This document shows, piece after piece, positions 1-52,750 of a DNA stretch of 64,000 bases; within the stretch, counting starts at the first letter, position 1; every line of letters starts with the position of its first letter. This DNA is from Thermomicrobiales bacterium (GTDB lineage: Bacteria > Chloroflexota > Chloroflexia > Thermomicrobiales > UBA6265). Under the pieces are notes generated by a model that made no database searches, had not been told where the DNA came from, and worked only from the letters and a program-made list of their open reading frames with translations. The stretch lies in assembly GCA_019637585.1 (NCBI GenBank), contig JAHBVL010000003.1, positions 401,827-465,826 of the forward strand. Reading direction: 5' to 3'. Made by a program: the position numbers and the translations under genes.

Positions 1-1540
1 CGGGGTCGCCTTCGCCAGTCAGAGGCACACAGTCGGCATACTCGTTGCAGATCGCGCATGGACCGCAGCTGTTGCCGGGATCGGTATCGCGCTCGACCTG
101 TTCGCAGTAGAGCCCGTCTTTGCAGACATGGCACGGCGCGCAGTCGATGTCGTCGGCGCAGCCTCGTCGCTGGCACTCGCCGCTGAAGCAGGTCAGACCG
201 GGGCAGCAGGCGCTGTCGTGACTGCACCGGTCCCATTCCTGCAGGCAGAGATCACAGTGCGGTTCCTGGCCGGTGAAGCCGATGCAGCCAAGCCCTTCAC
301 AACAGCGGTTGGTTTCCACATTGCACGACTCGTCGACGCCAAGACAGATACTCGGATCGCGCGTGGTCGTGGTCGTGGTAGTCGTCGTGGTGGTAGTCGT
401 AGTGGTGGTCGTAGTGGTCGTCGTAGTGGTCGTCGTGGTCGTGGTCGTAGTCGGACAAATGCAGGCGCCCTCGGCGCCACAGACGCACCCATCGCCGCAG
501 GGGAATGTGGCATCGATTTCGGGATCGACGAACTCGCATCTGCCGTAGAAGCACCACTGGCACTCCTCCGAACCGCAGGCCTGAAGATCGAAGTCGGCCT
601 CGTGACAACCGTGGTCCGACTGGCAGGCGAAGCACCCTTCGTCGTGTCCGAAGTCGATGCAGTCCTGCTGGGTGCAGCATTGAATGTGGGGGTCATAGCA
701 ATCGTTATTGCCGCCTGGACAGCAGGTCAGCTGCTGTTCGGCACAGACATCGAGCGTATCGCAGACAAATGGCGCGTTGCCGGCGGAATCGGGATCGCGA
801 TCGCAGAACCCATCCAGACACTGGCCGGGATTGTCGGAGCATTCGCCATCAGCGCAGCACTGACCCGCTCCGATGCAGACCGGTCTCCCCGCGGAGTCGG
901 TGCAGCAGCGCGTTCCCGCTGCGCAGCAGGCGCCATTCTCTGAAAAATCGCCAACGCCGGGGCAGAAGGTCGTCCCTTCACCAGCCAGACAGCAGGTCCG
1001 GTCGAATCCGGTCGCCGCCGACCCAGTGGGGGTGAAACAGGTTCCCTCGCAGCACCGGTTGTCGCAGGTCTGGCTGGTCGGACAGCAGGTCTCTTCCTGG
1101 ACAAACGGACCTTCGGCGAAAACCTGAGTCAGACAGGTGTGCCCAGCCGAACAGCACTCCCGGTCACAACAGGCCAGCGGCGAGTCGCAACATTCTCGGC
1201 CGCAGACTGCTGTGCCGTGCCCGAGGGTGCCATCGCAACAGATGGCCGACGCCCCAGAACGCGCACACGTCCCCGGATCGCAGCAGACCGTGCTGTTCGG
1301 GCACTGCACCTTTCCCGCCGGACAGAGTGGCGCTGGTGTGGTCGACGTGGTCGTCGGGGCGGGAGGACGGGGCGGGGGAATGGTCGGTCTGGTTCGGGCA
1401 TCGCGGGCATCGACCGCCTCAATGGCGACCCCACCCGTCAACGAGGCGCCACCCAACCCGAGCAGCCCCTTGATGATGGTGCGGCGCGATACGCCGCGCC
1501 CGACAAGTCGCGTCAGATGATCGAAACGGCGATCGTCCAT
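1..1540 (-). CDS. Tat-exported cysteine-rich protein, paralogue 1 (C-terminus beyond left edge)
   Basis: An open frame of 513 codons starts at the ATG at 1540 and runs off the window with no stop. Residues 1-45 form a twin-arginine signal: conserved tail MDDRRFDHLTRLVG, then SRRTIIKGLLGLGG. A Pro/Thr linker and CC-rich modules follow (for example CCDRECC). Residues 364-393 are 30 consecutive threonines in mixed ACG/ACC/ACT codons (362-451), then more Cys-rich sequence. The start is chosen because it aligns with the two paralogues downstream. By family knowledge the protein should be exported folded by Tat. Its function is unknown: no catalytic domain is visible, and it could be a structural, adhesive or metal-binding surface protein. 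Confidence 0.85.
   Translation of the reverse strand, partial: MDDRRFDHLTRLVGRGVSRRTIIKGLLGLGGASLTGGVAIEAVDARDARTRPTIPPPRPPAPTTTSTTPAPLCPAGKVQCPNSTVCCDPGTCARSGASAICCDGTLGHGTAVCGRECCDSPLACCDRECCSAGHTCLTQVFAEGPFVQEETCCPTSQTCDNRCCEGTCFTPTGSAATGFDRTCCLAGEGTTFCPGVGDFSENGACCAAGTRCCTDSAGRPVCIGAGQCCADGECSDNPGQCLDGFCDRDPDSAGNAPFVCDTLDVCAEQQLTCCPGGNNDCYDPHIQCCTQQDCIDFGHDEGCFACQSDHGCHEADFDLQACGSEECQWCFYGRCEFVDPEIDATFPCGDGCVCGAEGACICPTTTTTTTTTTTTTTTTTTTTTTTTTTTTTTRDPSICLGVDESCNVETNRCCEGLGCIGFTGQEPHCDLCLQEWDRCSHDSACCPGLTCFSGECQRRGCADDIDCAPCHVCKDGLYCEQVERDTDPGNSCGPCAICNEYADCVPLTGEGDP
362..451 (-). repeat. Threonine-codon microsatellite (30 Thr)
   Basis: Thirty in-frame ACG, ACC and ACT codons in irregular order encode an unbroken poly-threonine linker inside Cys-rich paralogue 1. 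Mixed codons suggest the amino-acid tract itself is maintained, rather than a freshly slipped simple repeat. Thr tracts in exported proteins often act as extended, potentially O-glycosylated stalks; that role is inferred here. Confidence 0.9.
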
Positions 1541-1901
1541 ACCAGGGCCCCCGTCGTAACTGAGATCGCTCGAACGCAACCGCCGCGGTTCTCGACGCGC
1601 GCCCGAATCCTCGACAACTCTCGTTGAGTCTTATGACTATCTGTACACGATCCTATCAGACCTTTTGTCCCGGCGAAAGGCCCGGATTCTTCCATCTCTA
1701 CGATAGAGACGCAGATTGAATCCCGGTATCCGTCCCTGGACGGATATTGCGCGTGGAACGGGAGTCAGCGAGGCGGAAAGGCGAGAGGCGGAAAGGCGGA
1801 AAAGGAGCTCGACGAGACGGCAAGGCGGCGAGTCGGCAAGACGGCCAGTAGTTCGGGCACCTGTGGCCCGATGAGGCGAACAGGTGGGTCCCTGAACCCC
1901 G

Positions 1902-2007
1902 CCCGGCCGTAAACGGGGCCGGGGCTCACGGTGCAATGGTCCTGCGGACCTCCGACTCAGCCCCGGCAGGGGCATCGCACCGTGAGCGACGCCGTTTAGG
2001 GCGTCGC
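1902..2007 (+). repeat. Four-hairpin structured repeat, copy 1
   Basis: In order: hairpin 1 (1902-1924, loop TAAA, with a small bulge); outer left arm CTCACGGTGCAAT (1925-1937); hairpin 2 GGTCCTGCGGACC (1938-1950); hairpin 3 GCCCCGGCAGGGGC (1960-1973); outer right arm ATCGCACCGTGAG (1974-1986); hairpin 4 GCGACGCC/GGCGTCGC (986-993 and 2000-2007 in register). The outer arms pair with one mismatch and enclose hairpins 2 and 3 as a three-way junction. I do not recognise it as a named RNA or transposon family. Confidence 0.75.
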
Positions 2008-2366
2008 GGTCTCGCGGGGGGAAAGGCTCTCCTACCCCCCGAGGAGGCGGAGAGGCGGAAAGGCGGAAAAGGAGTTGGGGAGTCGTCTTGCCGTCTCAAT
2101 CGCAGTTCGGGCATCTGTGGCCCGGCGAGACGCTTCGGGCTTCGGACTCCGGACCCATCGCTCCGGCGATCGGCCGAAGGTCGATAGACATCGCCCGTAA
2201 GGGCTGGTCCCTGTGCCAGCCCTTCGCATCACCAGCGACCACCGCCCCAAGCCACGAATGCCTCTTCCCCTGCCGACCTCGGATCAGCATCGTTGATGAT
2301 GCGAAGGGCACCCACAGGGGGGTGCCCGTACGGAATCGGCCCGGCGAGATGGGTCCGCGAGACCCA

Positions 2367-2469
2367 CCCGGCCGTAAACGGCCGGGCTCACGGTGCAATG
2401 GTCCTGCGGACCGGCGACTCAGCCCCGGCAGGGGCATCGCACTGTGAGCGACGCCGTTCAGGGCGTCGT
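2367..2469 (+). repeat. Four-hairpin structured repeat, copy 2
   Basis: Hairpin 1 is a perfect 8-bp stem, CCCGGCCGTAAACGGCCGGG (2367-2386). Outer arms are 2387-2399 and 2436-2448. Hairpin 2 is at 2400-2412, hairpin 3 at 2422-2435, hairpin 4 at 2448-2469. The right arm reads CACTGTGAG against a left arm CTCACGGTG, so one pair becomes G-T. That pair is intermediate between copy 1 (G-C) and copy 3 (A-T). A further GGGTC/GACCC hairpin sits just upstream at 2351-2365. Confidence 0.75.
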
Positions 2470-2775
2470 GGTCTCGCGGGGGGAAAGGCTCTCTCACCCC
2501 CCGACGAGGCGAAGAGGCGGAAAGGCGGAAAAGGAGTTGGGGAGTCGTCTTGCCGACTTGCCGTCTTGCCGTCTCAATCGCAGTTCGGGCATCGGTGGCC
2601 CGGCGAGACGCTTCGGGCTTCGGACTCCGGACCCATCGCTCCGGCAATTCCCTCACCCCCGGCCCCTCTCCCGACCGCAGGAATGTCCCTCACCCTGCCC
2701 TCTCCCGACCGCGGGAGAGGGTTCTTGTCCTTTTGCCCTTTGCCTTTTGCCCTTTGCCCATCCCCCATTTCCCAC

Positions 2776-2812
2776 AAAAAACCCGACCCGGGCACTCGGT
2801 CCGGGTCGGGTT
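2776..2812 (-). terminator. Rho-independent terminator of Cys-rich paralogue 2
   Basis: A perfect 12-bp stem, AACCCGACCCGG (2780-2791) with CCGGGTCGGGTT (2801-2812), encloses a 9-nt loop. On the minus strand it is followed by six T (A run at 2776-2781). It lies about 60 nt beyond the stop codon of paralogue 2. Confidence 0.85.
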
Positions 2813-2872
2813 CAAACGCTTTCGTGATGTTTCGTCCGGGAGCGATTGCTCACTCCCGGACGGGGGTGCGGG

Positions 2873-5563
2873 TCATCGACCCGGGCGCGTCCGCGTCCGG
2901 CCCGAGTCTCCGCCTTCCTCAGGCGCCGCCGTGGTTGTGGCGGGTGCTTCCGTGGTCGTGGCCGGTGCTTCGGTCGTGGTCACCGGTGCTTCCGTGGTGG
3001 TCGTCTCTTCCGGCTCGGGAGCTGGTGGCTCGCCGGTGCCGGCGTCTTCGCACTCACCGCACTCGATCGTACCGCCGCAACCGTCATCGACGTCGCCGCA
3101 TTCGCCTTCGTCGCAGACATCCTTCGGCGAGCACTCTTCCTCTGCGGCGACCATGATTTCCTCTGGCTCGGAGGCAGCAAATGCCCCACCGCAGAAGCCA
3201 CCCTCACAGCTACCGTTGCAGCACGGGCCGCCGCCGCCGCAAGCGGCGTGATCCGGAATGCAGTCCGAGCAGATGAACGTGGTGTCATGCGACCGGTCCA
3301 CGGCGTGGCAGTGCCCCATGGCGGCATAGTTGCCGGCCGCCTGACAGTTCGCCTCGCCATTGTGGGAGTTGTACGCCGCCGGGATGTTGTCGCCATTCGG
3401 TCCGCAACCGACCCAGCACGGAGCGTAGTGGCAGCAGCCGGAGCAGCAATCAGCGTCAACCTCACAGATCGGGCAGATGAACGCCTCGGCACTCGCCTCG
3501 TCGGCGTCCGCCATCTTGCAGGTACCGCGGCAGCAGACCTCATTCTGACCACCGCATCCCGTCATCACGCACTGGTTGCTGGCGCAGACACCGGTGTAGC
3601 AGTCACCCTCCGGGCAATCGGCGTCGACCACACAGGCGTGCTCGCCTGGGATGAACGTGCCGGTACCACCGCCCGCGCCGTCGCTGCCACAGATGCCGAT
3701 GACTTCGCCGCCCTCGATGATCGAGAAGCCAGGCCGCGCCTCGCACGCGCCAGCCGTACACAGCCAACATGGGGTGTCGGCCGGGGTCGGGGCGCAGTCA
3801 CCCGCACCTGTGCAGGCCGGACAAACTTCGACGCCCTCGCGGCAAGTGCCGTTGCAGCAGATGCCTCCGTCGCACTCGAACCCGGCCGGCGCGACACCAC
3901 AAACGCCCTGGCCATTGCAAACACGGCAGTCATCGCATTCGTCGTTGACGTCCGTGTTGAGTTGCGGTGTGCAGATGAACCCTTCACCGCAGTACTCGCA
4001 GAACCCGCACTCGTCGTCCCGCTCACAGCGGCAAATCTGAGCAGCCGGTGAGGCGCATTCGCCACGGCAGCAGACCTGGTTGCCAGAACAGAAGTCGTTG
4101 GGATCCGTGCCCAGCGGCAACTCGACGCACTCGCCCGCTTCGCAGGTTTCACAGCCATTGCACTCGCTTACGCAGGCGCCAGCACTGGTGCAAGTCTCAC
4201 AGGCATCACACGCGTCGTTGTCCGACGTGTAGGAACAAGCGCCAGCCGCACTACAGGTGCCGGTGAGGCATTCACCGGTCTCATCGCACAGCGCGTCGCT
4301 CGGACTATAGGAGCAGGCGCCCGCGGCACTGCACGTTCCGGTCAGACAGCCGTCCGCGCCCGTTTCCGTGCACAAGGCATTGTCAGGACTGTAGGAGCAG
4401 GTTCCCGAAGCACCGCATGTCCCGACGAGGCACTCGTCGTCACCGGTTTCCGCGCAGAGTTCGCTGTTCGGCGTATAGGAACACGTGCCGGCGGTGTCGC
4501 ACACTCCAACGAGGCAAGCGTCTTCGCCGGTTTCGGTGCAGAGCGCGTTGTTCGGTGTGTAGGTGCAACTGCCGTCACTATTGCAGACGCCAACCAAGCA
4601 GCCGTCTTCACCAGTCTCGTCGCAGAGCGCATCGCTCGGCGTGTATGTGCAGGTGCCGTCCCCTTCGCAGTTCGGAACCAGACAGGCATCCGGACCGGTC
4701 TCGGTGCACTCGTCGTCGAAGCAGCACTGCTCGGTGGTCAAACACTGGGCGATGCCGGCATTCGGCTCATCCTCTCGCACGCAGCAGCGTGGGGTCGGAT
4801 CTTCGCAGCAGACGGTGCCGACGCCATTCGGGTCGTCGAGCGGACCGGTGCAAACATTGCCGCCAGCCGGGCAGCAGGCCGCCCAGGCATTGATCTCAGT
4901 CGGATCGAGCGACGGGAAGATATTCGCGCCCGGATCGTAGCAAGAGCCATCGCAGCAGGTGTTGCCGCAAATCTGCGGAATCGGGCAGCAATGCTCTTCG
5001 AAGTAGTTTGCGGAGCTGTCGTACACGGTCGCCATACAGGCGTGGCCGTCCAGACAACACTCGCGGTCGCAACACTGGTGCTCGTAATTACAGCAATCGA
5101 GACCACACTGCCAGCCAGTGCCGCAGCAGAAGTCGTGATTGCCTTCGCGGGCACAAGCGCTGGTCTGGCCGCTATACGGCTCTGGAGCCACGGGCGAGCA
5201 ACACACGGTGCCGCACGCTTCCTCGCCAGGATCGCAGCATTCGGAACCGGCGCAGACACCGCTGTTGCAGCAAACGCCACCGCAATTGACCGCAGTGGTG
5301 CTGGTACAACAGATGCCATCCTTGCACATGCCGGCATCGCAGCAGACGCCACCACACATCTGCTTGGGCAGCGCACAAGCGGGCGGCGGAGGCGGCGGAA
5401 CAGTTGGCCGGGAGCGCGCGTCGCGGGCGTCGACGGCTTCAACAGCCAGTCCACCCGTCGCCGCGGCGCCGCCGATGCCCAGCAGCCCCTTCAGCACTGA
5501 ACGGCGTGAGGGACCCCCTCCGCCGATCAGTTTCGTCAGTTCGTCGAAACGTTTATTGTCCAA
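2873..5563 (-). CDS. Tat-exported cysteine-rich protein, paralogue 2 (896 aa)
   Basis: The start is a TTG at 5563 with GGAGAGG just upstream; it gives MDNKRFDELTKLIG, which aligns with the paralogues. PSRRSVLKGLLGIGG is the twin-arginine motif, and VEAVDARDARSRP plus a proline run closes the signal region. The body is made of CC/CxC modules, including CCDRECCLDG, shared with paralogue 3. Residues about 283-446 hold seven units of about 31 aa with the pattern CLxGxC...GxCxYxP...LC.ETG. The last 60 residues form a Thr/Ala/Pro/Glu tail with TTTEAP repeats. No enzyme domain is recognised. A cell-surface or extracellular disulfide-rich structural, adhesive or metal-binding role is inference. Confidence 0.88.
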   Translation of the reverse strand: MDNKRFDELTKLIGGGGPSRRSVLKGLLGIGGAAATGGLAVEAVDARDARSRPTVPPPPPPACALPKQMCGGVCCDAGMCKDGICCTSTTAVNCGGVCCNSGVCAGSECCDPGEEACGTVCCSPVAPEPYSGQTSACAREGNHDFCCGTGWQCGLDCCNYEHQCCDRECCLDGHACMATVYDSSANYFEEHCCPIPQICGNTCCDGSCYDPGANIFPSLDPTEINAWAACCPAGGNVCTGPLDDPNGVGTVCCEDPTPRCCVREDEPNAGIAQCLTTEQCCFDDECTETGPDACLVPNCEGDGTCTYTPSDALCDETGEDGCLVGVCNSDGSCTYTPNNALCTETGEDACLVGVCDTAGTCSYTPNSELCAETGDDECLVGTCGASGTCSYSPDNALCTETGADGCLTGTCSAAGACSYSPSDALCDETGECLTGTCSAAGACSYTSDNDACDACETCTSAGACVSECNGCETCEAGECVELPLGTDPNDFCSGNQVCCRGECASPAAQICRCERDDECGFCEYCGEGFICTPQLNTDVNDECDDCRVCNGQGVCGVAPAGFECDGGICCNGTCREGVEVCPACTGAGDCAPTPADTPCWLCTAGACEARPGFSIIEGGEVIGICGSDGAGGGTGTFIPGEHACVVDADCPEGDCYTGVCASNQCVMTGCGGQNEVCCRGTCKMADADEASAEAFICPICEVDADCCSGCCHYAPCWVGCGPNGDNIPAAYNSHNGEANCQAAGNYAAMGHCHAVDRSHDTTFICSDCIPDHAACGGGGPCCNGSCEGGFCGGAFAASEPEEIMVAAEEECSPKDVCDEGECGDVDDGCGGTIECGECEDAGTGEPPAPEPEETTTTEAPVTTTEAPATTTEAPATTTAAPEEGGDSGRTRTRPGR
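4200..4715 (-). repeat. Sevenfold internal Cys repeat of paralogue 2
   Basis: Seven consecutive coding units of roughly 93 nt each encode the motif CL(V/T)G(T/V)C, then GxCxY(T/S)P and ALC(D/T)ETG. The last unit is shortened. Units are similar but not identical, which points to older tandem duplication followed by divergence. Confidence 0.7.
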
Positions 5564-6312
5564 TACGCCCTCTCCTGTCCCTTCCCCGTTGCCCAACAAG
5601 ACCCGGCCGACCCTGCGCAAGGCGGCCATGCCGGGCGCGCATCAGCGCAACGGCACCTATGAAGTCCCTTTGCATACTACGGCAGTTTCGGCGTTTACGT
5701 CAATAGTTTTGAGTTGTTCACGACGTGTACGGACGAGGCGGAGAGGCGAATGGGCGGAGAGGCGGAAAGGGAGACGGCGAGTCGTCTGGCCGTCTGGCCG
5801 TCTCGTGAGGCCCGCCCGGCCGTAAACGGGCCGGGCTCACAGTGCAATGGTCCTCCGGACCTACGATTTCGCCCCGGCAGGGGCTTCGCACTGTGAGCGA
5901 CGCCGTTCACGGCGTCGCGGTCGCGCGGGGAGATCCCTCACCTCGGACACGCTCCGACCGCGGACTATCCCTCACCCCCAACCCCTCTCCCGCACGGGAG
6001 AGGGGGGCTATTTCCTATTTCCCATTTCCCATTTCCCATAAACCCGGCCCAGCTCGGGATGACAGACAACATGAAGGGGGCGGGGGGAGTTCCCTCACCC
6101 CCGGCCCCTCTCCCGACCGCGGGAGAGGGGGGCTGGTTCCCATCCTCTCGCCTCGCCGGGTCACATGTGCCCGAACTACGGTCGTCGTTTCCTATCCGCC
6201 TTTTCGCCCTTCCGCCTCGCCGGGCCACACGTGCCCGAACTACGGTCGTCTCGTCGTTTCCTTTTCGCCTCTCCGCCTCTCCGCCTCTTCGCCTCTTCGC
6301 CTTTTCGCCTAT
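5564..6312. other. Repeat-dense intergenic block 2
   Basis: This 749-nt gap lies between paralogues 3 and 2. It carries G/A-rich GAGGCG runs (about 5735-5780, and on the opposite strand 6185-6310), one four-hairpin element (5815-5918), and two perfect hairpins with CCCCTCTCCCG/CGGGAGAGGGG arms (5982-6005 and 6105-6130). Two inverted copies of the short GTTCGGGCA quasi-palindrome lie at 6152-6176 and 6216-6240, and a TTTCCCA run lies near 6015-6040. No gene is supported. Confidence 0.8.
5815..5918 (+). repeat. Four-hairpin structured repeat, copy 3
   Basis: Hairpin 1 is at 5815-5835. The outer arms CTCACAGTGCAAT (5836-5848) and TTCGCACTGTGAG (5885-5897) carry a compensatory G-C to A-T change relative to copy 1. 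Hairpin 2 is GGTCCTCCGGACC (5849-5861), hairpin 3 is unchanged (5871-5884). Hairpin 4 gains an extra pair, GCGACGCCG/CGGCGTCGC (5897-5918). Paired changes imply that the fold is selected, or was until recently. Confidence 0.75.
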
Positions 6313-9300
6313 CTACCGCGTGTACCGGCACTTCCCGGCCCGGCAGGTCAGTCCTTCGGCGCACTGGGACGTCGCGGAGCAGTCGGCGCCGGCCGGGAGG
6401 CCTTGCGTCGTGCAATCGCCGCAATAGACGTCGCCGTTGCCGTCGCAGGCGTTCGCGTAGTTGCCGCACCCGACCTGCTCGCATGAGGTCGGCGTGCAGC
6501 AATCGCCGCAGTAGACCGGACCATTGCCATCGCAGGCATCGGCATACCCACCGCACCCGACGTTCTGGCAGAAGGTCGGGACGCAGGGCGCCGGCGTGGT
6601 GCCGGGCGCCGGAGTCGTGCCAGGATCAGGCGTGGTGCCCGGATCAGGGGTGGTGCCCGGCTCCGGGGTGGTCGTCACGTTGCAGTCGATCGTGCTGCCG
6701 CAACCGTCGTCAACCATGCCGATGTCGCCGTCGGCGCAGAAGTCCTTCGGTGTGCAACTGCATGTTGCGGGATCGGTCGTGTCGTCCCAAACAGCGTTCG
6801 CATAGTCGCGTCCGCATTCGAGAATGCCGCATGGGCCGAGGTCGTGGACTCCGCAGGACAGGGTTTCGCAGGTCGGGCATTCGTCGACTGCGTCGAATTC
6901 GGAGGCTCCCAAGGAACCCGGGCAGCGATTCGTCGACATGTTGCATGAACCGTTGCAACAATTGTGCGTTCCGTCGCAGTAGGCGCCGTTCGGTATGCAA
7001 TCTCTGCAGGGGTAGCTGGTGTTGAACGACGTGTCCGGATTGTGGCAGTGGCCCTGGATTCCCTGGCAGGCGAGACTCGTTCCCGACCCGGTCTGGCCGT
7101 CGCAGCAACCCGGCCGCTGACTGCTGGAGAAGCCCCAATTCGGTGCGTAATGACAGCAGCCACTGCAGCAGTCGCTATCCACCTGGCAAACAGGGCAGAT
7201 GTTTCCGCCTCCGTCCGGTGTTCCACTAGCGCTCGCCGCCTTGCAGTGACCACGACAGCAGATTTCGGTTGCGGAGGGGCAAGACCCGGGCACGATATCG
7301 CACAGATGTTGCGTGTTGCAGGTACCCGTGTAGCACGGCCCCACGCAATCGCCACCGTCGCAACAAGCGTCACGCCCTGGTCTATAGACACCGAGACAAC
7401 ACATTCCCACAACGAAGCCGCCGTCGATAACTTCGTAGCCGTCCAGCCTGACCTGGCAGACACCGAGACCTGTGTGGCAGTAGTAGCACTGCGGATCGAT
7501 CCCGGTCGGCGGCACATTGCACTGATTCCCTTGAGCCGTGCACGGAGTACCGCAAGACGTCCCCGCCTGGCACTGGAGCGGCCCGCCAGGCACCGTCGGA
7601 CAGCAAACGCCCGGCTGGCCGATGCAGTCGTCCCCGCTGTTCACCGGGGTGTGCACACAACCCGACTGCGGATTGCAGGTGTCTATCGTGCAAGGATTCC
7701 CGTCGTCGCAGTTGACGGGCTCGTACTGGCAGCCGTTCTCCAGATCGCAACTGTCGGTCGTGCACGCGTCGCCGTCGTCGCAGGTGATGTCCGCGTGCTG
7801 GCAGGTGCCCGCTCCGCCACTGCCGTTGGGAAGGCAGGTGTCCTCGGTGCAGGCATTGTTGTCACTACAGGTGTCGCCGCAGAATGCGCAGTTCGGTATC
7901 ACGCCAAATTCGGTGCAGACGCCAGCGCAGCAGAAGCCATTGGGCTCGCCGTCGCACGGGAAGCTCAGCCCGTCGCCGATGTTGGTGTTGCAGTTGCACG
8001 CATAGCCGGAGCAAATCGGCCGCTTGCACTCGTTGTCGCAGGCTGCACAGGTGGTCGGATCGTCCTCGTCGCAGCACGCCGCTTCCGGCACACAGGTGCT
8101 CACCCCATCGACCATGCAGCAGAGTCCGCCGGGGCCCACGAGCACCCCCGCACATGCCGTATCGTCGCAGACGCATTCGCCGTCGATACAGACGTATCCA
8201 AGTTGGCAACTGTCGACCGGCGCACTGCAACTCGTGCCCTGGCAGCTGCGGACGAGACAGGCGCTGACGTCGGGACAACAGGCGTCGCTATCCGCGCTGC
8301 AGTCGAAGACGCAGCCCGACGTCGGGTCCGCACCCGTCGCGCCGGGATCGCAGACCCAGCAGATGTTGTCTGGCGACCCTATGCAGCTGCCGTGATTCGG
8401 TGTTGGTTCGCACACGCCCAGCGCACTGCAGACGCCCGTCGTGCAGATCCTGTCGTCGTCGTCCTGGCATGCGGCGCCTGTATCGGCCACACAAGCTCCC
8501 TCACCATCGCAGACCATGCAGGTGCCGCAAGGCTCGCCCTGATCGACGAACTGGTTGTCCGGGCAGATACCCATGACGCCGGGGAGGCAGAACGCGGGCA
8601 GATCACACTCCCCGACGGCTTCCCGGCAAACCGGCATCGGGCCGGGGCCAGCAAACGCACGCTCGCGGCATGTGCCGATCCCGTCAACGATGTCGCAGAA
8701 ACCTTCCACACAGTTTGTTTCGACTGTCAAATCGGAGCAGTCGTCGTCGGTGTCGCACTGGCCGCAGAAGTCTGCGCAGATCATGACGTTCCCGCTCGGA
8801 CAGCATACTTGGTCTCCGCAGTCCTCGAGCGGGTCAGTGCCCGGAGGAACATTCACGCAGACGCCGTTCGAGCACCACTGGCAGTCACCCGTGCCGCATG
8901 GGTCGTCGTCTTGCGTCACGTCTGGGATACAGCCCTCGTCCTCATCGCACATTTGGCAGGTGGGACAGAAGTTCGCGATCGGCGTAACAACACAGCCGTC
9001 TCCCGTCTCGCCACCTTCGGAGCCCTCCGGATTGCAGACGGCAGTGACACAATCTGAGTACCCCACACAGAGATCGTCGTCCGGTACGCAGTCCCATCGA
9101 TCGGTCGGCGACGGCTCATCCCCGGACTGGACCTTGCAGTCCATGCAGCTCGCGCCGCAGCTGTAGTTGTTGTTCTCCGCGCAGGTGTAGTCCCTGCCCT
9201 CTCCTGCAACGCAGGTCCCACACTCACCACAAACCGGACCGACGTCGTCTTCGTCGAGGCGGCCCTGACATGTGTAAACAACGGGGCCATCACCGCCTTC

Positions 9301-11583
9301 GGGAGTGTCCGGCAAGCACTCCTGGCAAGCCGTGCAGACATCGCCACAGGCCGAGCAATTGTCGTTTGTGCCGAGGACCGTGCAGATCAGGCCCCCGTTG
9401 TCCGGGCAGCAGACGTCGCCGGCATCGCAGGTGTCATGCGTTTCGCCGGCCGTACCAGTGATCGTGCAGTTGTACGGCGTGTACCGCCCGCTGGTGCTCG
9501 TCCCTTGTTCGCATGTCATGCAGTCGGGGCACGATTCGCACTCGATTTGGCACTGTTCGGAGTACTCGAACTTCATCCAGCAGACGAATGGCGCCTCTCC
9601 CGCTCCTCCCGAATTGAGCAGGCACTCGCCACAATCGCCGCAGGGATCTATCTCACGCTCCCTGCAGGCAAATTCACCCTCGTCTTCGTCGAAGAAGCAC
9701 TCGCCGCAACCGCAATCGAAGTCCTGCGGGCAGAGGCAGGTGACTCCCTCGACGCAGACCAGATCGTTCCCTTGCGGGCAGCAGATCGACCCGTCGCCAC
9801 AGTCGTTGAGCGGGTCCTCTCCTGCCGGCACGCCGAAACAGAAACCGTTGATGCAATACCGGCAGTCCGGGCAGTCATCGTAGGGGTCGGTCCCGTTCGG
9901 AACCAAGAGGCACAGTCCGTCGCCATTGCAGGCATAGCAGTTGTCGCAGCCGGTGTACTGCCCGGCCGGAAGGCTTTCACACGAGAATCCGTTGCCGTCG
10001 ACCAGGCATTCCTCGCACACGGTGCAGGCGGCCGCGTTGATCGTGCATTGACCGGTTTGGGTGTTGCAGGTGCCGCAATCGCCGCAGCAGGTCGGACTGG
10101 TCCGGCAGTCGAACGCACAACCATCGCTATCCGCATCCATGCTGGTTGGCAGACAGACATGGCAGGCGGAGCAGAGGTTGTCGTTTGGCGTATGGACGCA
10201 CCCGGTTTGCGGATTGCACGTATCCACCGTGCAGAGAATGTCGTCATCGCAGCTGATCACTGTGTAGATGCAGCCGAGCTCGCCCTGTTCCGGGTCGGCA
10301 TTGCAGGTGTCGGCCGTGCAGGCGTTGAAGTCGTCGCAGAGCGCCGGCACCTCCATGCACACCCCATTCAGGCAAAGAACGCTGACGTAGGTGTTGCCTT
10401 CGCAGTAGTCGGGCGGGCAGCCACTCTCGTCGACGCAGCATTCAGCGTCGGCGGCGGCGCAATACTCGGCCCCGTCACCATCGACACAGCACTGAGGCAG
10501 TCCCGCGGGACAGTCGCTCGGACAGGATCCCGTGACACCGTCGGATGCGATCTCGCAGGTCTGGCATCCGCCGCATTGCCGGTCGTCCGGAACGCAGTCG
10601 CCGTCGTCGCAGACACCGCAACCGGTGCAAATCAGCTGCTCATCGCGGCAAACGCCACCGTCGCAAACCGAGCAGAGTCCATGCAGTTCCTGGCAAACCG
10701 GCGTCGAATCGACGCATTGGCTGTTGACGGGATCGGTCGTATCGCAGATATCGCACTCGACCCCGCAGTCGCCATCCGTGCAGCAGGCGTTGTCGGCGAT
10801 ACAGATCGCCACACCGCCGCGATGACAGCATTTCGTGCCTGACGCGCAGCAGAGCGATCCGTTCGACCCGGCGCACACCTCGGCGTCGGCCGGGCAGCAC
10901 TCGTAGTCGACATTGAGCAGACCGTCACTGGTGGGAAGGGTCGTCGCATTCGGGTCATAGCAAACGCCGCCCAGACAACAGGTGCCATCGCAGGTCTGGT
11001 CGATCGGGCAGCAATGTTCTTCGAAGAAATTGGCGGAGCTGTTGAAGATCCTGGCCATGCAGACATAGCCGTCCAGGCAGCACTCCCGGTCGCAGCACTG
11101 GTGCTCGTAGCTACAGCACTCGAGACCGCAGGGGAACTGGTCGGGCTGGGAACCGTCGCAGCAGAAATCGACATTCCCCTCCCGGGCACAGTCGACGGCC
11201 GTCGGGCAGCAGGTGTTGCCGCACGCTTTATAGCCAGGCAAGCAGCAGGTCGTGCCGGCGCAAACTCCGCTCGGGCAACAGTTGACCCCGTCGCAGCTCC
11301 CTTGCCCCGGCGTGCAGCAGACGCCGTTGACGCACCCTCCGGGCGCGCAGCACTGCCCATCACCACACCATTGCTTCGGCAACGGGCATGCCGGAGGAGG
11401 CACGGGCGTGGTGGTGCCGTCACCTGGTCGGCTGCGGGCATCGCGGGCGGCGACGTCCTCGACCGCTGTCTCGACGCCCACCGCAGCGGCGCCGCCGAGA
11501 CCCAGCAATCCCTTGAAAATCGATCGCCGGGACGAACCCGCACCGATCAATTTTGTGATCTGGTCGAAACGCTTGTCATCCAT
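6313..11583 (-). CDS. Giant Tat-exported cysteine-rich protein, paralogue 3 (1756 aa)
   Basis: The ATG at 11583 gives MDDKRFDQITKLIGAG then SRRSIFKGLLGLGG, the same extended twin-arginine signal as its paralogues. Cys reaches nearly one residue in four near the N-terminus. Many CDDGxxCTxDxCxxxxGCxxxP units occur, resembling the Dickkopf-like Cys-rich repeats of myxobacterial and planctomycete surface proteins. A modular Cys-rich region fills most of the chain. Residues about 1634-1664 are (T)TPxPG repeats, followed by a short Cys-rich tail (ACDGNG.VYCGDC twice). No catalytic motif is seen. Size and composition suggest a secreted or wall-associated fibre, adhesin or metal-binding matrix protein; this is inference. 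Confidence 0.88.
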   Translation of the reverse strand: MDDKRFDQITKLIGAGSSRRSIFKGLLGLGGAAAVGVETAVEDVAARDARSRPGDGTTTPVPPPACPLPKQWCGDGQCCAPGGCVNGVCCTPGQGSCDGVNCCPSGVCAGTTCCLPGYKACGNTCCPTAVDCAREGNVDFCCDGSQPDQFPCGLECCSYEHQCCDRECCLDGYVCMARIFNSSANFFEEHCCPIDQTCDGTCCLGGVCYDPNATTLPTSDGLLNVDYECCPADAEVCAGSNGSLCCASGTKCCHRGGVAICIADNACCTDGDCGVECDICDTTDPVNSQCVDSTPVCQELHGLCSVCDGGVCRDEQLICTGCGVCDDGDCVPDDRQCGGCQTCEIASDGVTGSCPSDCPAGLPQCCVDGDGAEYCAAADAECCVDESGCPPDYCEGNTYVSVLCLNGVCMEVPALCDDFNACTADTCNADPEQGELGCIYTVISCDDDILCTVDTCNPQTGCVHTPNDNLCSACHVCLPTSMDADSDGCAFDCRTSPTCCGDCGTCNTQTGQCTINAAACTVCEECLVDGNGFSCESLPAGQYTGCDNCYACNGDGLCLLVPNGTDPYDDCPDCRYCINGFCFGVPAGEDPLNDCGDGSICCPQGNDLVCVEGVTCLCPQDFDCGCGECFFDEDEGEFACREREIDPCGDCGECLLNSGGAGEAPFVCWMKFEYSEQCQIECESCPDCMTCEQGTSTSGRYTPYNCTITGTAGETHDTCDAGDVCCPDNGGLICTVLGTNDNCSACGDVCTACQECLPDTPEGGDGPVVYTCQGRLDEDDVGPVCGECGTCVAGEGRDYTCAENNNYSCGASCMDCKVQSGDEPSPTDRWDCVPDDDLCVGYSDCVTAVCNPEGSEGGETGDGCVVTPIANFCPTCQMCDEDEGCIPDVTQDDDPCGTGDCQWCSNGVCVNVPPGTDPLEDCGDQVCCPSGNVMICADFCGQCDTDDDCSDLTVETNCVEGFCDIVDGIGTCRERAFAGPGPMPVCREAVGECDLPAFCLPGVMGICPDNQFVDQGEPCGTCMVCDGEGACVADTGAACQDDDDRICTTGVCSALGVCEPTPNHGSCIGSPDNICWVCDPGATGADPTSGCVFDCSADSDACCPDVSACLVRSCQGTSCSAPVDSCQLGYVCIDGECVCDDTACAGVLVGPGGLCCMVDGVSTCVPEAACCDEDDPTTCAACDNECKRPICSGYACNCNTNIGDGLSFPCDGEPNGFCCAGVCTEFGVIPNCAFCGDTCSDNNACTEDTCLPNGSGGAGTCQHADITCDDGDACTTDSCDLENGCQYEPVNCDDGNPCTIDTCNPQSGCVHTPVNSGDDCIGQPGVCCPTVPGGPLQCQAGTSCGTPCTAQGNQCNVPPTGIDPQCYYCHTGLGVCQVRLDGYEVIDGGFVVGMCCLGVYRPGRDACCDGGDCVGPCYTGTCNTQHLCDIVPGSCPSATEICCRGHCKAASASGTPDGGGNICPVCQVDSDCCSGCCHYAPNWGFSSSQRPGCCDGQTGSGTSLACQGIQGHCHNPDTSFNTSYPCRDCIPNGAYCDGTHNCCNGSCNMSTNRCPGSLGASEFDAVDECPTCETLSCGVHDLGPCGILECGRDYANAVWDDTTDPATCSCTPKDFCADGDIGMVDDGCGSTIDCNVTTTPEPGTTPDPGTTPDPGTTPAPGTTPAPCVPTFCQNVGCGGYADACDGNGPVYCGDCCTPTSCEQVGCGNYANACDGNGDVYCGDCTTQGLPAGADCSATSQCAEGLTCRAGKCRYTR

Positions 11584-12370
11584 CAGACACCGGTCCTTAT
11601 TCCGCGCAACCTCGCTGCCGCGCGCGTGCCCATATCGACGATGGTTGATTCCCATCGCCAAAATTCGCTCTTATACCCCTGAGCTCCCAAGCCTGGCGGA
11701 TAGTACGGATCGGAGAGCGGCAACGTCAAGGCGGTTCAGGCGGCAAATCTATGGAATTCGCGCAACGCGCACGCCTTTTGCCTCAACAATTACCCCGGAG
11801 GGTATCTGCCCCTCTCGCCGGACACTCAGCCTGGGGTCGCCCACAAGCATAAGAACTGATGGCCAAATTGTATACAGTCCCGGCAAAGCATCTGCATCAT
11901 TGACTGATAGCGCCATGTTTACCGATGTCACCGGCGGATTCCCCATCTTCATTGCAAATCAGATCAACAACTGCGCACTTTCCGTCAGCAACTGAAAACT
12001 CACCCGCAGTCCATTCGGACCCTCGAACGGGTCTGTTCGGATATTTAACGGCACGTACGATGATCGTACGGGGGACGAAGGCGGAGAGGCGAATAGGCGG
12101 AGAGGCGGAAAGGAAGACGGGGAGACGGCAAGACCGGTAAACGTGGTTCGGGCACGTGTGGCCCGATGAGGCGAACAGGCGAGAGGCGGAGAGGCGGAAA
12201 GGAAGACGGGGAGACGGCAAGACGGGGAGACGGCAAGACCGGTAAACCTGGTTCGGGCACCTGTGGCCCGATGAGGCGGAGAGGCGAATAGGCGGAGAGG
12301 CGGACAGGAGTCGGCGAGTCGACACTCTCCCCTCTCCCGCAAGGGAGAGGGGCCGGGGGGTGAGGGATAT

Positions 12371-12449
12371 TCCCGCGATGCCCCTATCGGGGCGATACCG
12401 TTGGTCCGAAGGACCATTGCGCCGTGAGCCCGGCCCGTTTACGGCCGGG
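12371..12449 (-). repeat. Four-hairpin structured repeat, copy 4 (truncated, inverted)
   Basis: On the minus strand hairpin 1 (12429-12449), the outer left arm (12416-12428), hairpin 2 with a TTC loop (12403-12415) and hairpin 3 with a changed GATA loop (12380-12393) are kept. The outer right arm is only partly recognisable and hairpin 4 is absent, replaced by the flank of a CCCCTCTCCC hairpin. Stems of hairpins 2 and 3 are unchanged while both loops differ. Confidence 0.65.
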
Positions 12450-12517
12450 CGGGTCCCCCCGAACTCTGCCTCGCCGGACGAACAGGCGAAGAGGCACGTG
12501 GCAACGACGCGCACACT

Positions 12518-12541
12518 CCCCTCTCCCGCAAGGGAGAGGGG
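12518..12541. repeat. CCCCTCTCCC hairpin downstream of RraA-like gene
   Basis: A perfect 10-bp stem, CCCCTCTCCC/GGGAGAGGGG, has a GCAA loop. It lies 14 nt beyond the stop of the minus-strand RraA-like gene and could protect or end its transcript, though no T run follows. The same element recurs at 2698, 5982, 6105, 12329 and 14608. Confidence 0.65.
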
Positions 12542-12554
12542 CCGGGGGTGAGGG

Positions 12555-13226: not shown

Positions 13227-13244
13227 GGAGTGCTCCTTGGATAG

Positions 13245-13385
13245 AGTTGATAGTGCATAGTTCATAGTTGATAGTGCATAGTGCATAGTGCATAGTGCAT
13301 AGTTATTTATAAATAATAGACGAAGCTGTTTATCTACCATCTACCATGAACTATCAACCATGCACTATTCACTATGCACTATTCC
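13245..13385. repeat. Inverted heptad array (ATAGTGC/ATAGTTC type)
   Basis: Positions about 13250-13304 are consecutive 7-bp units of the type ATAGTGC, ATAGTTC and ATAGTTG. A perfect TTATTTATAAATAA palindrome follows (13303-13316). Positions 13332-13385 carry the same units in inverted, less regular orientation. The whole gap between the UxaA-like and RraA-like genes can therefore fold into one long imperfect hairpin in the operon mRNA. Confidence 0.8.
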
Positions 13386-14567
13386 CTAAATATGAAACTC
13401 AAAATGCCCCAATTCCTCCGCCCGCGTCAATTCACCATTCGCGGTACGGAGAATCGCGTCGTAGATATCCTCTCCGACCTGGGCGAGTGATTTCTCACCG
13501 GTGACGATCGCGCCGGCATTGATGTCCATGTTGTCGCTCATCCGGGCATAAGTCTCCGGGTTGCCGCAGACTTTGATCACCGGCACGATACCCGAACCGG
13601 TCACCGTGCCCCGCCCGGTGGTGAAAACGACCAGATGCGCGCCGCAGGCGGCCAGCTCGGTCACGCCGTTCGGATCGCTGATCGTCCCGGCGCCGGTCCA
13701 GCCCGCTTCTTCAACATAGAAGGGCGCCAGGAGATGAAGACCTGCTTCAGCCGGCCGTTCCCACGCTCCACCATGCAGCACGCTGCGCACTGGCGTCGAA
13801 CCCGCTTTGCAAACGGCGCCCAACGACTTCTCCTCGATCGTGGTCAGACCACCCTCGATATTGCCGGCGCTGATGGCCCGTTGCCCGGTGCGTACTCCCC
13901 ACTGGCGCGCACTCTGAATCGCCGCAACGATCTCGGACGCAACCTCGGGCGTGGCCGCCTGGCGAACCAGCGCCTCCTCGCACCCGAGCAGTTCGTTTGT
14001 CTCTTCGAAGATCACGGTGCCGCCGGCCCCGATGATGGCATCCGAGGCCAGACCGAGCGCCGGGTTGGCCGCCAGCCCGGAGGTGGTGTCCGAACCGCCG
14101 CACTCGACCCCAACGAGCAGGTCCGCAACACCGATTTCACGCCGCTCGAACGGTTCGGCCATCAACGCGCGGCCTCGTTCGACACCCTGTTCGATCGCCG
14201 CACGCGTGCCGCCGGCTCCCTGGATCGACACCAGCGAAACCGGTTTGCCCATCTCGGCAATCGCCTGGGCGATCTCGGGCGCGTCGGTGCATTCACAGCC
14301 AAGCGACATCACCAGCACGGCGCCAACATTGGGATTTGCCGCCAACCGCAGCATCTTTCGCTGGGCATGCGGGCTGACCATGCAGTCCCGCCACCCAGCC
14401 ACGACCGCATCGTCACCCAGCTGCATCGCCACCCGCCGCGACACTTCCTCCGCGCAAACCACAGTGAAGAGCACCAGCAACCGATTCCGAATCCCGACCT
14501 GACCGTCGGGCCGGAGATAGCCGGAGAAACGAAGGCTGCTAGCACTTGTCTGATCGTGTTGGTTCAT
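13386..14567 (-). CDS. UxaA family dehydratase, large (catalytic) subunit
   Basis: The 393-aa protein belongs to the altronate/galactarate dehydratase C-terminal family (also sulfolactate sulfo-lyase large subunit). The family opening GYLRPDGQVGIRNRLLV, a cysteine-containing LGCECTD segment, VGVECGGSDTTSG and an FTTGRGTVTGSGIVPVIKVCGN region are present. These enzymes dehydrate sugar acids using an Fe-type cofactor. The small SAF subunit is the preceding gene. The ATG at 14567 is the only usable start before the conserved domain, yet no Shine-Dalgarno is seen: the heptad array ends 3-4 nt upstream. Exact substrate (altronate, galactarate-type acid or sulfolactate) cannot be fixed from sequence alone. 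Confidence 0.87.
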   Translation of the reverse strand: MNQHDQTSASSLRFSGYLRPDGQVGIRNRLLVLFTVVCAEEVSRRVAMQLGDDAVVAGWRDCMVSPHAQRKMLRLAANPNVGAVLVMSLGCECTDAPEIAQAIAEMGKPVSLVSIQGAGGTRAAIEQGVERGRALMAEPFERREIGVADLLVGVECGGSDTTSGLAANPALGLASDAIIGAGGTVIFEETNELLGCEEALVRQAATPEVASEIVAAIQSARQWGVRTGQRAISAGNIEGGLTTIEEKSLGAVCKAGSTPVRSVLHGGAWERPAEAGLHLLAPFYVEEAGWTGAGTISDPNGVTELAACGAHLVVFTTGRGTVTGSGIVPVIKVCGNPETYARMSDNMDINAGAIVTGEKSLAQVGEDIYDAILRTANGELTRAEELGHFEFHI

Positions 14568-14569
14568 TG

Positions 14570-14606
14570 TGCATAGTTCATAGTTGATAGTTCATGGTTG
14601 ATAGTC
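14570..14606. repeat. Heptad array at UxaA-large start
   Basis: About five units of the ATAGTTC/ATAGTTG type occupy the -3 to -40 region of the UxaA-like large-subunit gene, where a ribosome binding site would be expected. Confidence 0.75.
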
Positions 14607-14607
14607 T

Positions 14608-14631
14608 CCCCTCTCCCGTGAGGGAGAGGGG
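14608..14631. repeat. CCCCTCTCCC hairpin downstream of UxaA small subunit
   Basis: A 10-bp stem, CCCCTCTCCC/GGGAGAGGGG, with a GTGA loop lies 15 nt beyond the stop of the minus-strand SAF-domain gene and next to a heptad array. It may stabilise or attenuate the operon transcript. Confidence 0.6.
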
Positions 14632-14645
14632 CTGGGGGTGAGGGA

Positions 14646-14936
14646 TTAAGCATCATCCACACTCAAACTCTCGACATTGTGCACATGAACGTGCCGGCCC
14701 ACGTCGATGGCCGCCGTCGCCCGCCCGATCGGCTGTCCATACTTGACCACAGACTCACCCGCGACGATGCCGCTCAGCGCGACCTTATGTCCAAGACCGA
14801 CCGGGTCATGCAATTGCAGACTCCCCCTCGGCCCCGATTTGTCCGCAACACTGGCCACCGCCCCACGCTCCAGATCGCGCAACGCCGTCGCCACATTGTC
14901 CGACTCATGGACTATCAGTAAGTCAGGCGCACCCAC
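14646..14936 (-). CDS. UxaA family small subunit (SAF domain)
   Basis: The 96-aa product has the SAF fold typical of the N-terminal part of altronate dehydratase or the SuyA-type small subunit: LLIVHESDNVATALRDLERG, HKVALSGIVAGESVVKYGQPIG and a C-terminal VGRHVHVHNVES motif. It starts at GTG 14936 with GAGAAGGA about 9 nt upstream. It pairs with the large subunit encoded next, so the dehydratase is split into two chains. The small subunit probably helps bind substrate carboxylate at the metal centre. Confidence 0.85.
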   Translation of the reverse strand: MGAPDLLIVHESDNVATALRDLERGAVASVADKSGPRGSLQLHDPVGLGHKVALSGIVAGESVVKYGQPIGRATAAIDVGRHVHVHNVESLSVDDA

Positions 14937-14960
14937 AACGACGAGTCCTTCTCCCTGTCC

Positions 14961-15017
14961 AATGAACCATCAACTATCAACTATCAACCATGAACTATCA
15001 ACTATGAACTATGAACA
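14961..15017. repeat. Heptad array between rbsD and SAF gene
   Basis: About eight units, on the plus strand GAACCAT, CAACTAT and GAACTAT, are the reverse complement of the ATAGTTG/ATAGTTC type. They fill the gap immediately after the rbsD stop codon. Confidence 0.75.
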
Positions 15018-15020
15018 ACC

Positions 15021-15410
15021 CTACCCACTCACCACAATGATGTTCGCATACGGCACCGTTTCCCCGGTCCGAACCGTCGCCTTCCCGGTGGCCGAGAGCC
15101 GCTTCAGTTCGAGGTGCGACATCCGCTGCACCGGGATTTCCGGACCGACAAGCGCCTCCAGCTGCGCCACCCAGTCTGGACTGGCCACGTCGGCTTCGTT
15201 CGCGACAACGATCCGGTCGATCGCCCATTCGGCGTGAATCGCACTGAGCACGTCCAGCACCGTTGGGATCCCTTCCACCAGCGCCAGATCGATCCGTTGG
15301 GGCCCATCCGGAACGGGATACCCTTTATCGGAGATGGTGAAGTAATCGGTATGCCCGGTACTGGCCAGCAGGTGGGCAAGCGCCGGATTGAGAATGCCGT
15401 CTTTCTTCAC
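15021..15410 (-). CDS. rbsD: D-ribose pyranase
   Basis: The 129-aa product matches RbsD/FucU: GILNPALAHLLASTGHTDYFTISDKGYPVP at the N-terminus with the catalytic His region, a central DLALVEGIPTVLDVL, and a C-terminal RTGETVPYANIIVVSG with the usual Tyr/Asn motif. RbsD interconverts pyranose and furanose forms of ribose so that the sugar can be phosphorylated. The start is GTG 15410, preceded by GGAGGAGAAGG and overlapping the stop of the upstream gene (GTGA). Its place beside an Rbs-type ABC transporter supports a sugar substrate; no ribokinase gene is in the window. Confidence 0.9.
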   Translation of the reverse strand: MKKDGILNPALAHLLASTGHTDYFTISDKGYPVPDGPQRIDLALVEGIPTVLDVLSAIHAEWAIDRIVVANEADVASPDWVAQLEALVGPEIPVQRMSHLELKRLSATGKATVRTGETVPYANIIVVSG

Positions 15411-15622
15411 GCCTTCTCCTCCGGAACCTCGAGTCCCCAGTAACCGAAGTAACGACGTCGCTGGTCGAGCGTCACCTGCTCGCGAAAGTCAAGGGCCGGC
15501 CGCTTGAGAAACACATCGACCTGCGTAGCCGACACCACTTCCCAGCCCTGCGCCCCCAACGCATTGAGCGCCGCTTCTTCAGGCGCGCGTTCGACCCGGT
15601 ACTCCCATGCTGTTGGCTTCAT
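15407..15622 (-). CDS. DUF4177-like small protein
   Basis: This 71-aa protein has the pattern WEYRVE...LNALGAQGWEVVSATQ of the DUF4177 family: a small beta-rich domain with a conserved GWE turn. It is preceded by GGGAGAGG and overlaps the rbsD start by 4 nt, so it is translationally coupled to rbsD. Function is unknown; an accessory role in the sugar operon is only suggested by position. Confidence 0.7.
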   Translation of the reverse strand: MKPTAWEYRVERAPEEAALNALGAQGWEVVSATQVDVFLKRPALDFREQVTLDQRRRYFGYWGLEVPEEKA

Positions 15623-15633
15623 TCGTACCTCTC

Positions 15634-15700
15634 CCCCAGGTCAAGACCTGGGGCTAAACGACACGAAGTCCCTCCGGGACTGAACCCACGTCCCTAGGAC
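15634..15700. repeat. Three-hairpin intergenic element
   Basis: CCCCAGGTC/GACCTGGGG is a 9-bp stem with an AA loop (15634-15653). GTCCC TCC GGGAC follows (15668-15680), then GTCC CTA GGAC (15690-15700). It lies between rbsC and the DUF4177-like gene and resembles widely dispersed REP-like palindromes; it may stabilise the upstream transporter mRNA. Confidence 0.6.
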
Positions 15701-15726
15701 CGTCCCGGCCCCAAAAACGACGCATC

Positions 15727-15769
15727 GATGAACCATCAACTATGAACCATGCACTATCAACTATGCACT
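15727..15769. repeat. Heptad array downstream of rbsC
   Basis: About six units of the same 7-bp family (on the plus strand GAACCAT, CAACTAT, GCACTAT) lie just beyond the rbsC stop. Confidence 0.7.
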
Positions 15770-15775
15770 TCCCCC

Positions 15776-27121: not shown

Positions 27122-27140
27122 GGCATGGGTTCCTGCCGCT

Positions 27141-27172
27141 CAGTGCATAGTTCATAGTTGATAGTGCATAGA
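27141..27172. repeat. Heptad array between the two hydrolase genes
   Basis: Four to five units of the ATAGTTC/ATAGTTG/ATAGTGC family lie 20 nt after the stop of the first hydrolase-like gene. This is the only array of this family seen outside 13-16 kb. Confidence 0.7.
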
Positions 27173-52265: not shown

Positions 52266-52409
52266 GAAAACCGCGACCTGTTCTAATCGGCGGGCCTCAT
52301 CCGGGCCTCCGGTATCGCTTGGAATCTTAGTCCCTGCCCCGCGAATTGCACATACCCGACGTCATCTTTGCGGAATCCGCCAGTTCCAATACCAGCTCCC
52401 CTCAACCAC

Positions 52410-52750
52410 CCGGTAGCTGCAGACCCCCGTGTCTGCGATTGCCATGGGAAACAATGTCATGCTTCGCCCGCCAGCCAATCACGCTGTAGTCGCAGACCCC
52501 CGTGTCTGCTTTCCCATGGGAAACAATGGCATGCTTCGCCCGCCTGCCAATCACCCTGTAGTCGCAGACCCCCGTGTCTGCTTTCCCATGGGAAACCATG
52601 ACATTCGTCGCTCACCTGCCAATTGCCTAGTAGCTGCAGACCCCCGTGTCTGCTTTCCCATGGGAAACAATGTCATGCTTCGCCCGCCTGCCAATCACCC
52701 TGTAGTCGCAGACCCCCGTGTCTGCTTTCTTATGGGAAACGATGTCATGC
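52410..52750. repeat. 72-bp tandem repeat array with palindromic cores
   Basis: Five direct copies begin at 52419, 52492, 52564, 52636 and 52708, so the period is 72-73 bp. Each carries the hairpin GCAGACCCCCGTGTCTGC and most carry the perfect palindrome TTTCCCATGGGAAA, then a less conserved CATGCTTCGCCCGCC tract. Two inverted core copies follow at 52777-52802 and 52846-52876. There are no variable spacers, which argues against CRISPR. The array occupies the LuxR gene's upstream region. Confidence 0.85.

What the first reader, a model, noticed from the sequence alone, without database searches (positions are those of the whole stretch)
1..12554. Tandem locus of three giant Tat-exported cysteine-rich proteins
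Three adjacent minus-strand genes (partial, 896 aa, 1756 aa) share an N-terminal tail, twin-arginine signal, CC-rich modules and Thr/Pro linkers, but no known enzyme domain. The cluster is a lineage-type surface or secreted system whose role is not described by any family I can name. Shared blocks such as CCDRECC prove paralogy. Each gene sits beside a repeat-packed intergenic region.
Basis: partly seen in the sequence, partly recalled or inferred. Interest (0 to 1): 0.8.

Follow-up and report, generated by a model that had tools for sequence, protein, structure and literature searches.

The report
Disulfide-packed secreted protein gene array
An uncultured bacterium carries at least 24 related genes, six of them in one row, for very large exported proteins in which every cysteine appears to be locked in a disulfide bond; they resemble slime-mould matrix proteins in design, but the family is known from only two bacterial genera and its job is untested.

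Summary
The three window genes (1293 aa, cut by the window edge; 896 aa; 1756 aa) belong to a six-gene same-strand array. The genome (uncultured Thermomicrobiales-family MAG, Chloroflexota) holds at least 24 members, sharing a Tat leader (RFDxLTRLxGxGASRRxxLKGLLG) and a CGx[ED]CC..CCDRECC..EExCCP core. The core was found in only one sister genus among 158 class genomes. The leader itself is a general export signal of the order, also carrying tyrosinase and transglycosylase cargo.

Key new evidence is Cys parity. The mature protein has an even Cys number in 23 of 23 intact members (p = 1.2e-7; no other residue does this), and Thr/Pro linkers cut the chain into even-Cys blocks (40 of 42). This argues for complete disulfide pairing in autonomous modules, against thiolate metal binding. 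N-domains are conserved (dN/dS 0.11-0.24); the rest is mosaic.

Modules are partly nameable (Dicty_CTDC, knottin-like Toxin_12/Dickkopf_N); the N-domain model matches no solved fold. Most likely these are secreted matrix or surface proteins, but function is inferred. DsbB and VKOR were not found, which leaves oxidation unexplained.

The parts
1..1540 (-). Array gene 4 of 6 (1293 aa in full; C-terminal part lies outside the window)
   Evidence: C23:399485-403366
1049..1204 (-). Core module CGRECC..CCDRECC..EETCCP
362..451 (-). Poly-Thr linker (30 Thr) between a 54-Cys and a 162-Cys block
131..358 (-). Knottin-like segment: Toxin_12 (2.2e-4, just above cut-off), Dickkopf_N (3.2e-5, just below)
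1580..2872 (.). Repeat-packed spacer
2873..5563 (-). Array gene 5 (896 aa, 132 Cys)
5426..5563 (-). Tat leader, predicted cleavage VDA|RDA (invariant AR columns)
4610..5380 (-). Conserved N-domain, mean pLDDT 77, short beta hairpins
4952..5107 (-). Core module CGLDCC..CCDRECC..EEHCCP
4425..4658 (-). 84-bp tandem repeat = 28-aa Cys repeat (ETGEDGCLVGVCNSDGSCTYTPNNALCT)
3185..3730 (-). C-proximal domain (GGEVIGIC..CCSGCCHYAP..CCNGSC) shared with the 1756-aa protein
   Evidence: sequence
2876..2902 (-). Basic C-terminal tail RTRTRPGR, similar in 4 of the 6 array proteins
5630..6312 (.). Repeat-packed spacer
6313..11583 (-). Array gene 6 (1756 aa, 280 Cys)
10975..11130 (-). Core module CGLECC..CCDRECC..EEHCCP
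7609..7869 (-). Three Dicty_CTDC repeats (1e-24)
6916..7440 (-). C-proximal domain shared with the 896-aa protein
   Evidence: sequence
6586..6675 (-). TTPxPG linker
11662..12554 (.). Repeat-packed spacer at the upstream border of the array

Best explanation
A lineage-specific family of large modular exported proteins. Shown by sequence: each has a Tat-type leader with an RFD motif upstream of the twin Arg and a conserved A|R signal-peptidase site; a conserved N-domain; then a variable string of Cys-rich modules, in many members separated by Thr/Pro linkers. Inferred: the chain leaves by Tat, is cleaved at A|R, and ends outside the membrane (no lipobox, no LPxTG anchor) with every Cys in an intra-module disulfide, giving protease-resistant beads on a string. 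Inferred more weakly: the common N-domain is the shared docking or assembly part, the exchanged modules give binding variety, and the proteins build an extracellular matrix or coat, as Dicty_CTDC matrix proteins do in Dictyostelium. Members arise by duplication and by exchange of everything behind the N-domain.
For: Six-gene array and at least 24 genome-wide members. Leader with invariant RR and AR columns; TatC present. Even Cys in 23/23 mature proteins, p 1.2e-7, other residues 8-16/23; blocks between Thr/Pro linkers 40/42 even; Cys to the left of a linker even 28/29 against 95/255 at non-linker gaps; a wider set of leader-bearing Cys-rich ORFs 23/29. N-domain dN/dS 0.11-0.24; for one pair identity 86-98% in the first 240 aa, then about 35%. 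Dicty_CTDC repeats; CTDC proteins are listed as matrix proteins (PMC4931340). Window genes of 896 and 1756 aa are sisters (96/94). Other leader proteins of the genome end in LPNTG plus a membrane helix, and the genome has five sortase domains, so the leader set includes surface proteins.
Against: No DsbB or VKOR found, so the oxidant is unknown. Tat normally proofreads folding and did not export an scFv without its disulfides (PMC6708511), which is awkward for chains with up to 140 disulfides. Matrix function rests on module analogy only. No fold match for the N-domain; full-length model unreliable (mean pLDDT 53). The parity tests are not fully independent because members share ancestry. The genome is a MAG; there are no expression data.
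Confidence: 0.5

Rival explanations
1. A secreted antagonism or binding repertoire: a constant N-domain delivers variable knottin-like modules that act on other organisms (toxins, inhibitors, adhesins).
For: Constant N, exchanged C parts; Toxin_12-like and Dickkopf_N-like segments; strong copy-number expansion in two genera.
Against: The marginal toxin-family match reflects knottin Cys spacing, shared by many harmless proteins; no recognisable toxin domain and no convincing partner gene in the spacers; proteins far larger than knottin toxins.
Confidence: 0.2
2. Metal-binding (metallothionein-like) extracellular proteins using thiolate ligands.
For: 8-18% Cys; a MopE-like segment below cut-off in the 1681-aa member.
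Against: Even Cys count in 23/23 proteins and 40/42 blocks, which thiolate clusters do not require.
Confidence: 0.07
3. A decaying or nearly neutral expansion driven by repeat-mediated duplication in a repeat-rich genome.
For: Repeat-packed spacers; one member interrupted by a stop codon (C29:150287).
Against: dN/dS 0.11-0.24 in N-domains; even Cys kept in 23/23 intact members.
Confidence: 0.05

Closest known systems
Dicty_CTDC (PF00526) proteins: Dictyostelium ecmA/ecmB/psi matrix proteins
   Same: Tandem Cys-rich repeats in exported proteins; three repeats in the 1756-aa protein match at 1e-24
   Different: Only a small part of one window protein; bacterial Tat leader; an N-domain without counterpart
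Knottin-like Toxin_12 / Dickkopf_N
   Same: Cys spacing of one 76-aa segment in the 1293-aa protein
   Different: One module in a giant chain; no target known
Giardia variant-specific surface proteins
   Same: Coat proteins resistant to proteolysis, large family (PMC6341118 abstract); Cys-rich with a conserved end and a variable rest (my knowledge)
   Different: Analogy only, no sequence relation tested; eukaryotic and membrane-anchored
Order-wide RFD-Tat leader proteins of Thermomicrobiales relatives
   Same: Same leader; many small Cys-rich proteins, one with Stig1 repeats
   Different: Genera other than the sister genus lack the CCDRECC-type core

Membership tests
Tat substrate | Twin-Arg motif, Gly/Ala-rich h-region, cleavage site | tested here: met
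   Invariant RR and A|R in 17 aligned leaders; Pfam TAT_signal and TIGR01409 only sub-threshold
Tat substrate | Export depends on TatC | not testable with these tools
   TatC gene present
Dicty_CTDC repeat proteins | CTDC repeats above Pfam cut-off | tested here: met
   1756-aa protein segment, 86 bits vs cut-off 27, three stretches; not shown for the other window proteins
Knottin / Toxin_12 | Match above gathering score | tested here: inconclusive
   22.2 vs 21 bits for a cut-out segment but 15.1 in the longer partial protein
Metallothionein-like | Cys as free thiolate ligands, so no reason for an even count | tested here: not met
   Even Cys 23/23 proteins, 40/42 blocks; indirect test
LPxTG sortase-anchored protein | C-terminal LPxTG, hydrophobic helix, basic tail | tested here: not met
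   Core members end in RTRTRPGR or Cys-rich ends, unlike other leader proteins
Lipoprotein | Lipobox Cys at the cleavage site | tested here: not met
   No Cys at the A|R site
Granulin | Pfam granulin match | tested here: not met
   Core segment: no Pfam family up to E 10
Polymorphic toxin | C-terminal toxin domain and adjacent immunity gene | tested here: inconclusive
   No toxin domain by Pfam/NCBIfam; no convincing gene in the spacers

The most novel reading that the evidence does not exclude
This lineage exports giant, wholly disulfide-built proteins (up to about 140 disulfides) by Tat, using an order-specific RFD leader element and an oxidative folding route that is neither DsbB nor VKOR, perhaps acting before export.
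Probability: 0.12. Interest if true: 0.85.

Novelty: new variant of a known kind. Interest (0 to 1): 0.55.

Why it matters
It would be an unusually rich bacterial set of giant disulfide-based modular proteins, of a design mostly known from eukaryotic matrices and coats, sent out by a pathway thought to check folding before export. It gives a direct test case for how Tat handles disulfide-dependent cargo and who makes the bonds. The Cys parity test is also a simple way to recognise fully disulfide-bonded proteins in unannotated genomes.

Tried and rejected
Full-length Pfam, NCBIfam, PHROGs and PDB sequence scans of the window proteins gave nothing beyond weak Tat hits and noise. The full-length Pfam scan missed Dicty_CTDC, found only with a cut-out segment. 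The first core profile A2 looked confined to one genome; the broader A3 found the sister genus, so the single-genome claim was dropped. The named-genome scan with A2 found nothing; with a sister-genus protein it named Thermomicrobiales bacterium ACE_NR_CHLO10. The leader alignment could not be used for that scan. Plasmids and viral contigs: no core relative. Fold search: no significant match; full-length AlphaFold model too weak to use. The metal-binding idea was rejected on Cys parity. The array as one clade was rejected: starred branches force at least two changes. Papers: no description of this family found, open-access texts only.

Full report
Where it lies. The window is G000:C23:401827-465826 of a 3.94 Mb genome in 33 contigs, 96.6% complete. 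A sister genus in the same family is Thermomicrobiales bacterium isolate ACE_NR_CHLO10, so the host is an uncultured Thermomicrobiales-family bacterium of the Chloroflexota.

Observation. The three minus-strand genes are real, but they are the upstream end of a six-gene array: 697, 1681, 1167, 1293, 896 and 1756 aa. On one side lie a LUD-domain (lactate-utilisation type) gene and a galactarate/altronate dehydratase, on the other an RraA-like gene, a second galactarate/altronate dehydratase and a sugar ABC transporter (the transporter by eye). The array thus sits inside a sugar-acid catabolic region with no obvious partner genes.

Family size and spread. A leader profile finds 35 loci at E below 1e-3 in this genome, 23 of them with E below 1e-21; core searches and pattern matching give 24 members. 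A second cluster lies at C1:31-60 kb. With a broad core profile, hits occur in this genome and in the sister genus (11 hits), plus one borderline hit with a stop codon elsewhere, out of 32 family and 158 class genomes. A narrower profile found none in other genomes of a 400-genome phylum sample. Absence in incomplete genomes is weak evidence, but 10 of the family genomes are at least 90% complete and at most 5% contaminated. No same-genus genome was held, so 'two genera' is a lower bound.

Leader. MDxxRFDxLTRLxGxGASRRxxLKGLLGLGG..ADA|RxARTRPTIPPP has invariant F, D, RR and AR columns. In relatives the leader occurs in up to 47 genes per genome, in front of unrelated cargo: tyrosinase 5.8e-34, SLT transglycosylase 8e-11, Stig1 repeats 1.8e-10, and many small Cys-rich proteins. 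It is a general export signal of the order, not a mark of this family.

Cysteines. Members have 8-18% Cys. After removal of the leader, Cys number is even in 23 of 23 intact members (two have one extra Cys inside the leader); by chance p = 1.2e-7 if they were independent. The same count for the other 19 residues gives 8-16 of 23. Thr/Pro linkers cut the chains into blocks with even Cys in 40 of 42 cases; the two odd blocks (1 and 27) are neighbours and sum to 28. Counting Cys to the left of a cut, 28 of 29 linkers are even, but only 95 of 255 Cys-free gaps of other composition. Leader-bearing Cys-rich ORFs outside the own-genome core family are even in 23 of 29, one of the odd ones being a false pick without a leader. 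I read this as complete disulfide pairing inside autonomous modules. Shared ancestry makes the p-values optimistic; the residue and gap controls are less exposed to that.

Evolution. N-domains are under purifying selection (dN/dS 0.11-0.24). C12:148527 and C1:30959 are 86-98% identical over 240 residues and about 35% after it; the 1293- and 1167-aa array genes share the first 120 and last 80 residues but not the middle. This is module exchange behind a fixed N-domain. In the N-domain tree the 896- and 1756-aa genes are sisters (96/94) and the 1293- and 1681-aa genes are sisters (98/91), but the array is not one clade.

Modules. Cut-out segments match Dicty_CTDC (three repeats, 1e-24, in the 1756-aa protein), Toxin_12 (2.2e-4) and Dickkopf_N (3.2e-5, just below cut-off) in the 1293-aa protein, and Cu-binding_MopE below cut-off in the 1681-aa protein; the core and the C-proximal domain match nothing. 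The AlphaFold model of the N-domain (17 sequences) has mean pLDDT 77, with the first 60 residues above 90, and is made of short beta hairpins. No PDB match is significant; the weak ones are EGF, TNFR and toxin-like ectodomains. The rest of the 896-aa protein is not predicted with confidence.

Mechanism. Shown by sequence: leader, cleavage-site pattern, module plan, Cys parity, selection. Inferred: Tat export, cleavage, disulfide formation, extracellular matrix or surface role. TatC is present and five sortase domains too, and several other leader proteins carry LPNTG tails, but the core family lacks them. DsbB and VKOR were not found. A review reports that Tat tolerates about 100-120 unstructured hydrophilic residues but did not export an scFv without its disulfides (PMC6708511). 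How chains of up to 1700 residues with some 140 disulfides pass is therefore an open question, unless they fold outside or by an unseen oxidase.

Verdict. Function remains inference.

Noticed in passing
L087:1107-2012, L021:5199-6563, L021:8053-8715 (G000:C1:29-45 kb): The second family cluster is interleaved with plus-strand tailed-phage head genes: major capsid (phrog_212, 7.8e-69), SPP1-type portal (1.9e-16), SU10 adaptor-like (1.7e-5, just below cut-off). Viral contigs with the same capsid carry compact head genes and no Cys-rich genes.
   Followed up: partly
L088, G000:C29:150287-150703: A family member interrupted by one in-frame TAA, with the open frame continuing behind it: pseudogene or assembly error.
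   Followed up: no
L093, G000:C1:654042-656975: A sortase gene close to a leader-bearing Cys-rich protein with an LPNTG tail.
   Followed up: no
L057: Leader protein of another family of the order with a phospholipase-A2-like CNGHDICYGTC stretch (by eye) followed by Stig1 repeats; 74 Cys.
   Followed up: partly
window 13240-15770 and 27130-27154: 7-bp repeats of the type ATAGTTGATAGTGCAT in spacers of the catabolic genes.
   Followed up: no
window 52403-52750: 72-bp tandem repeat, 4.8 copies.
   Followed up: no
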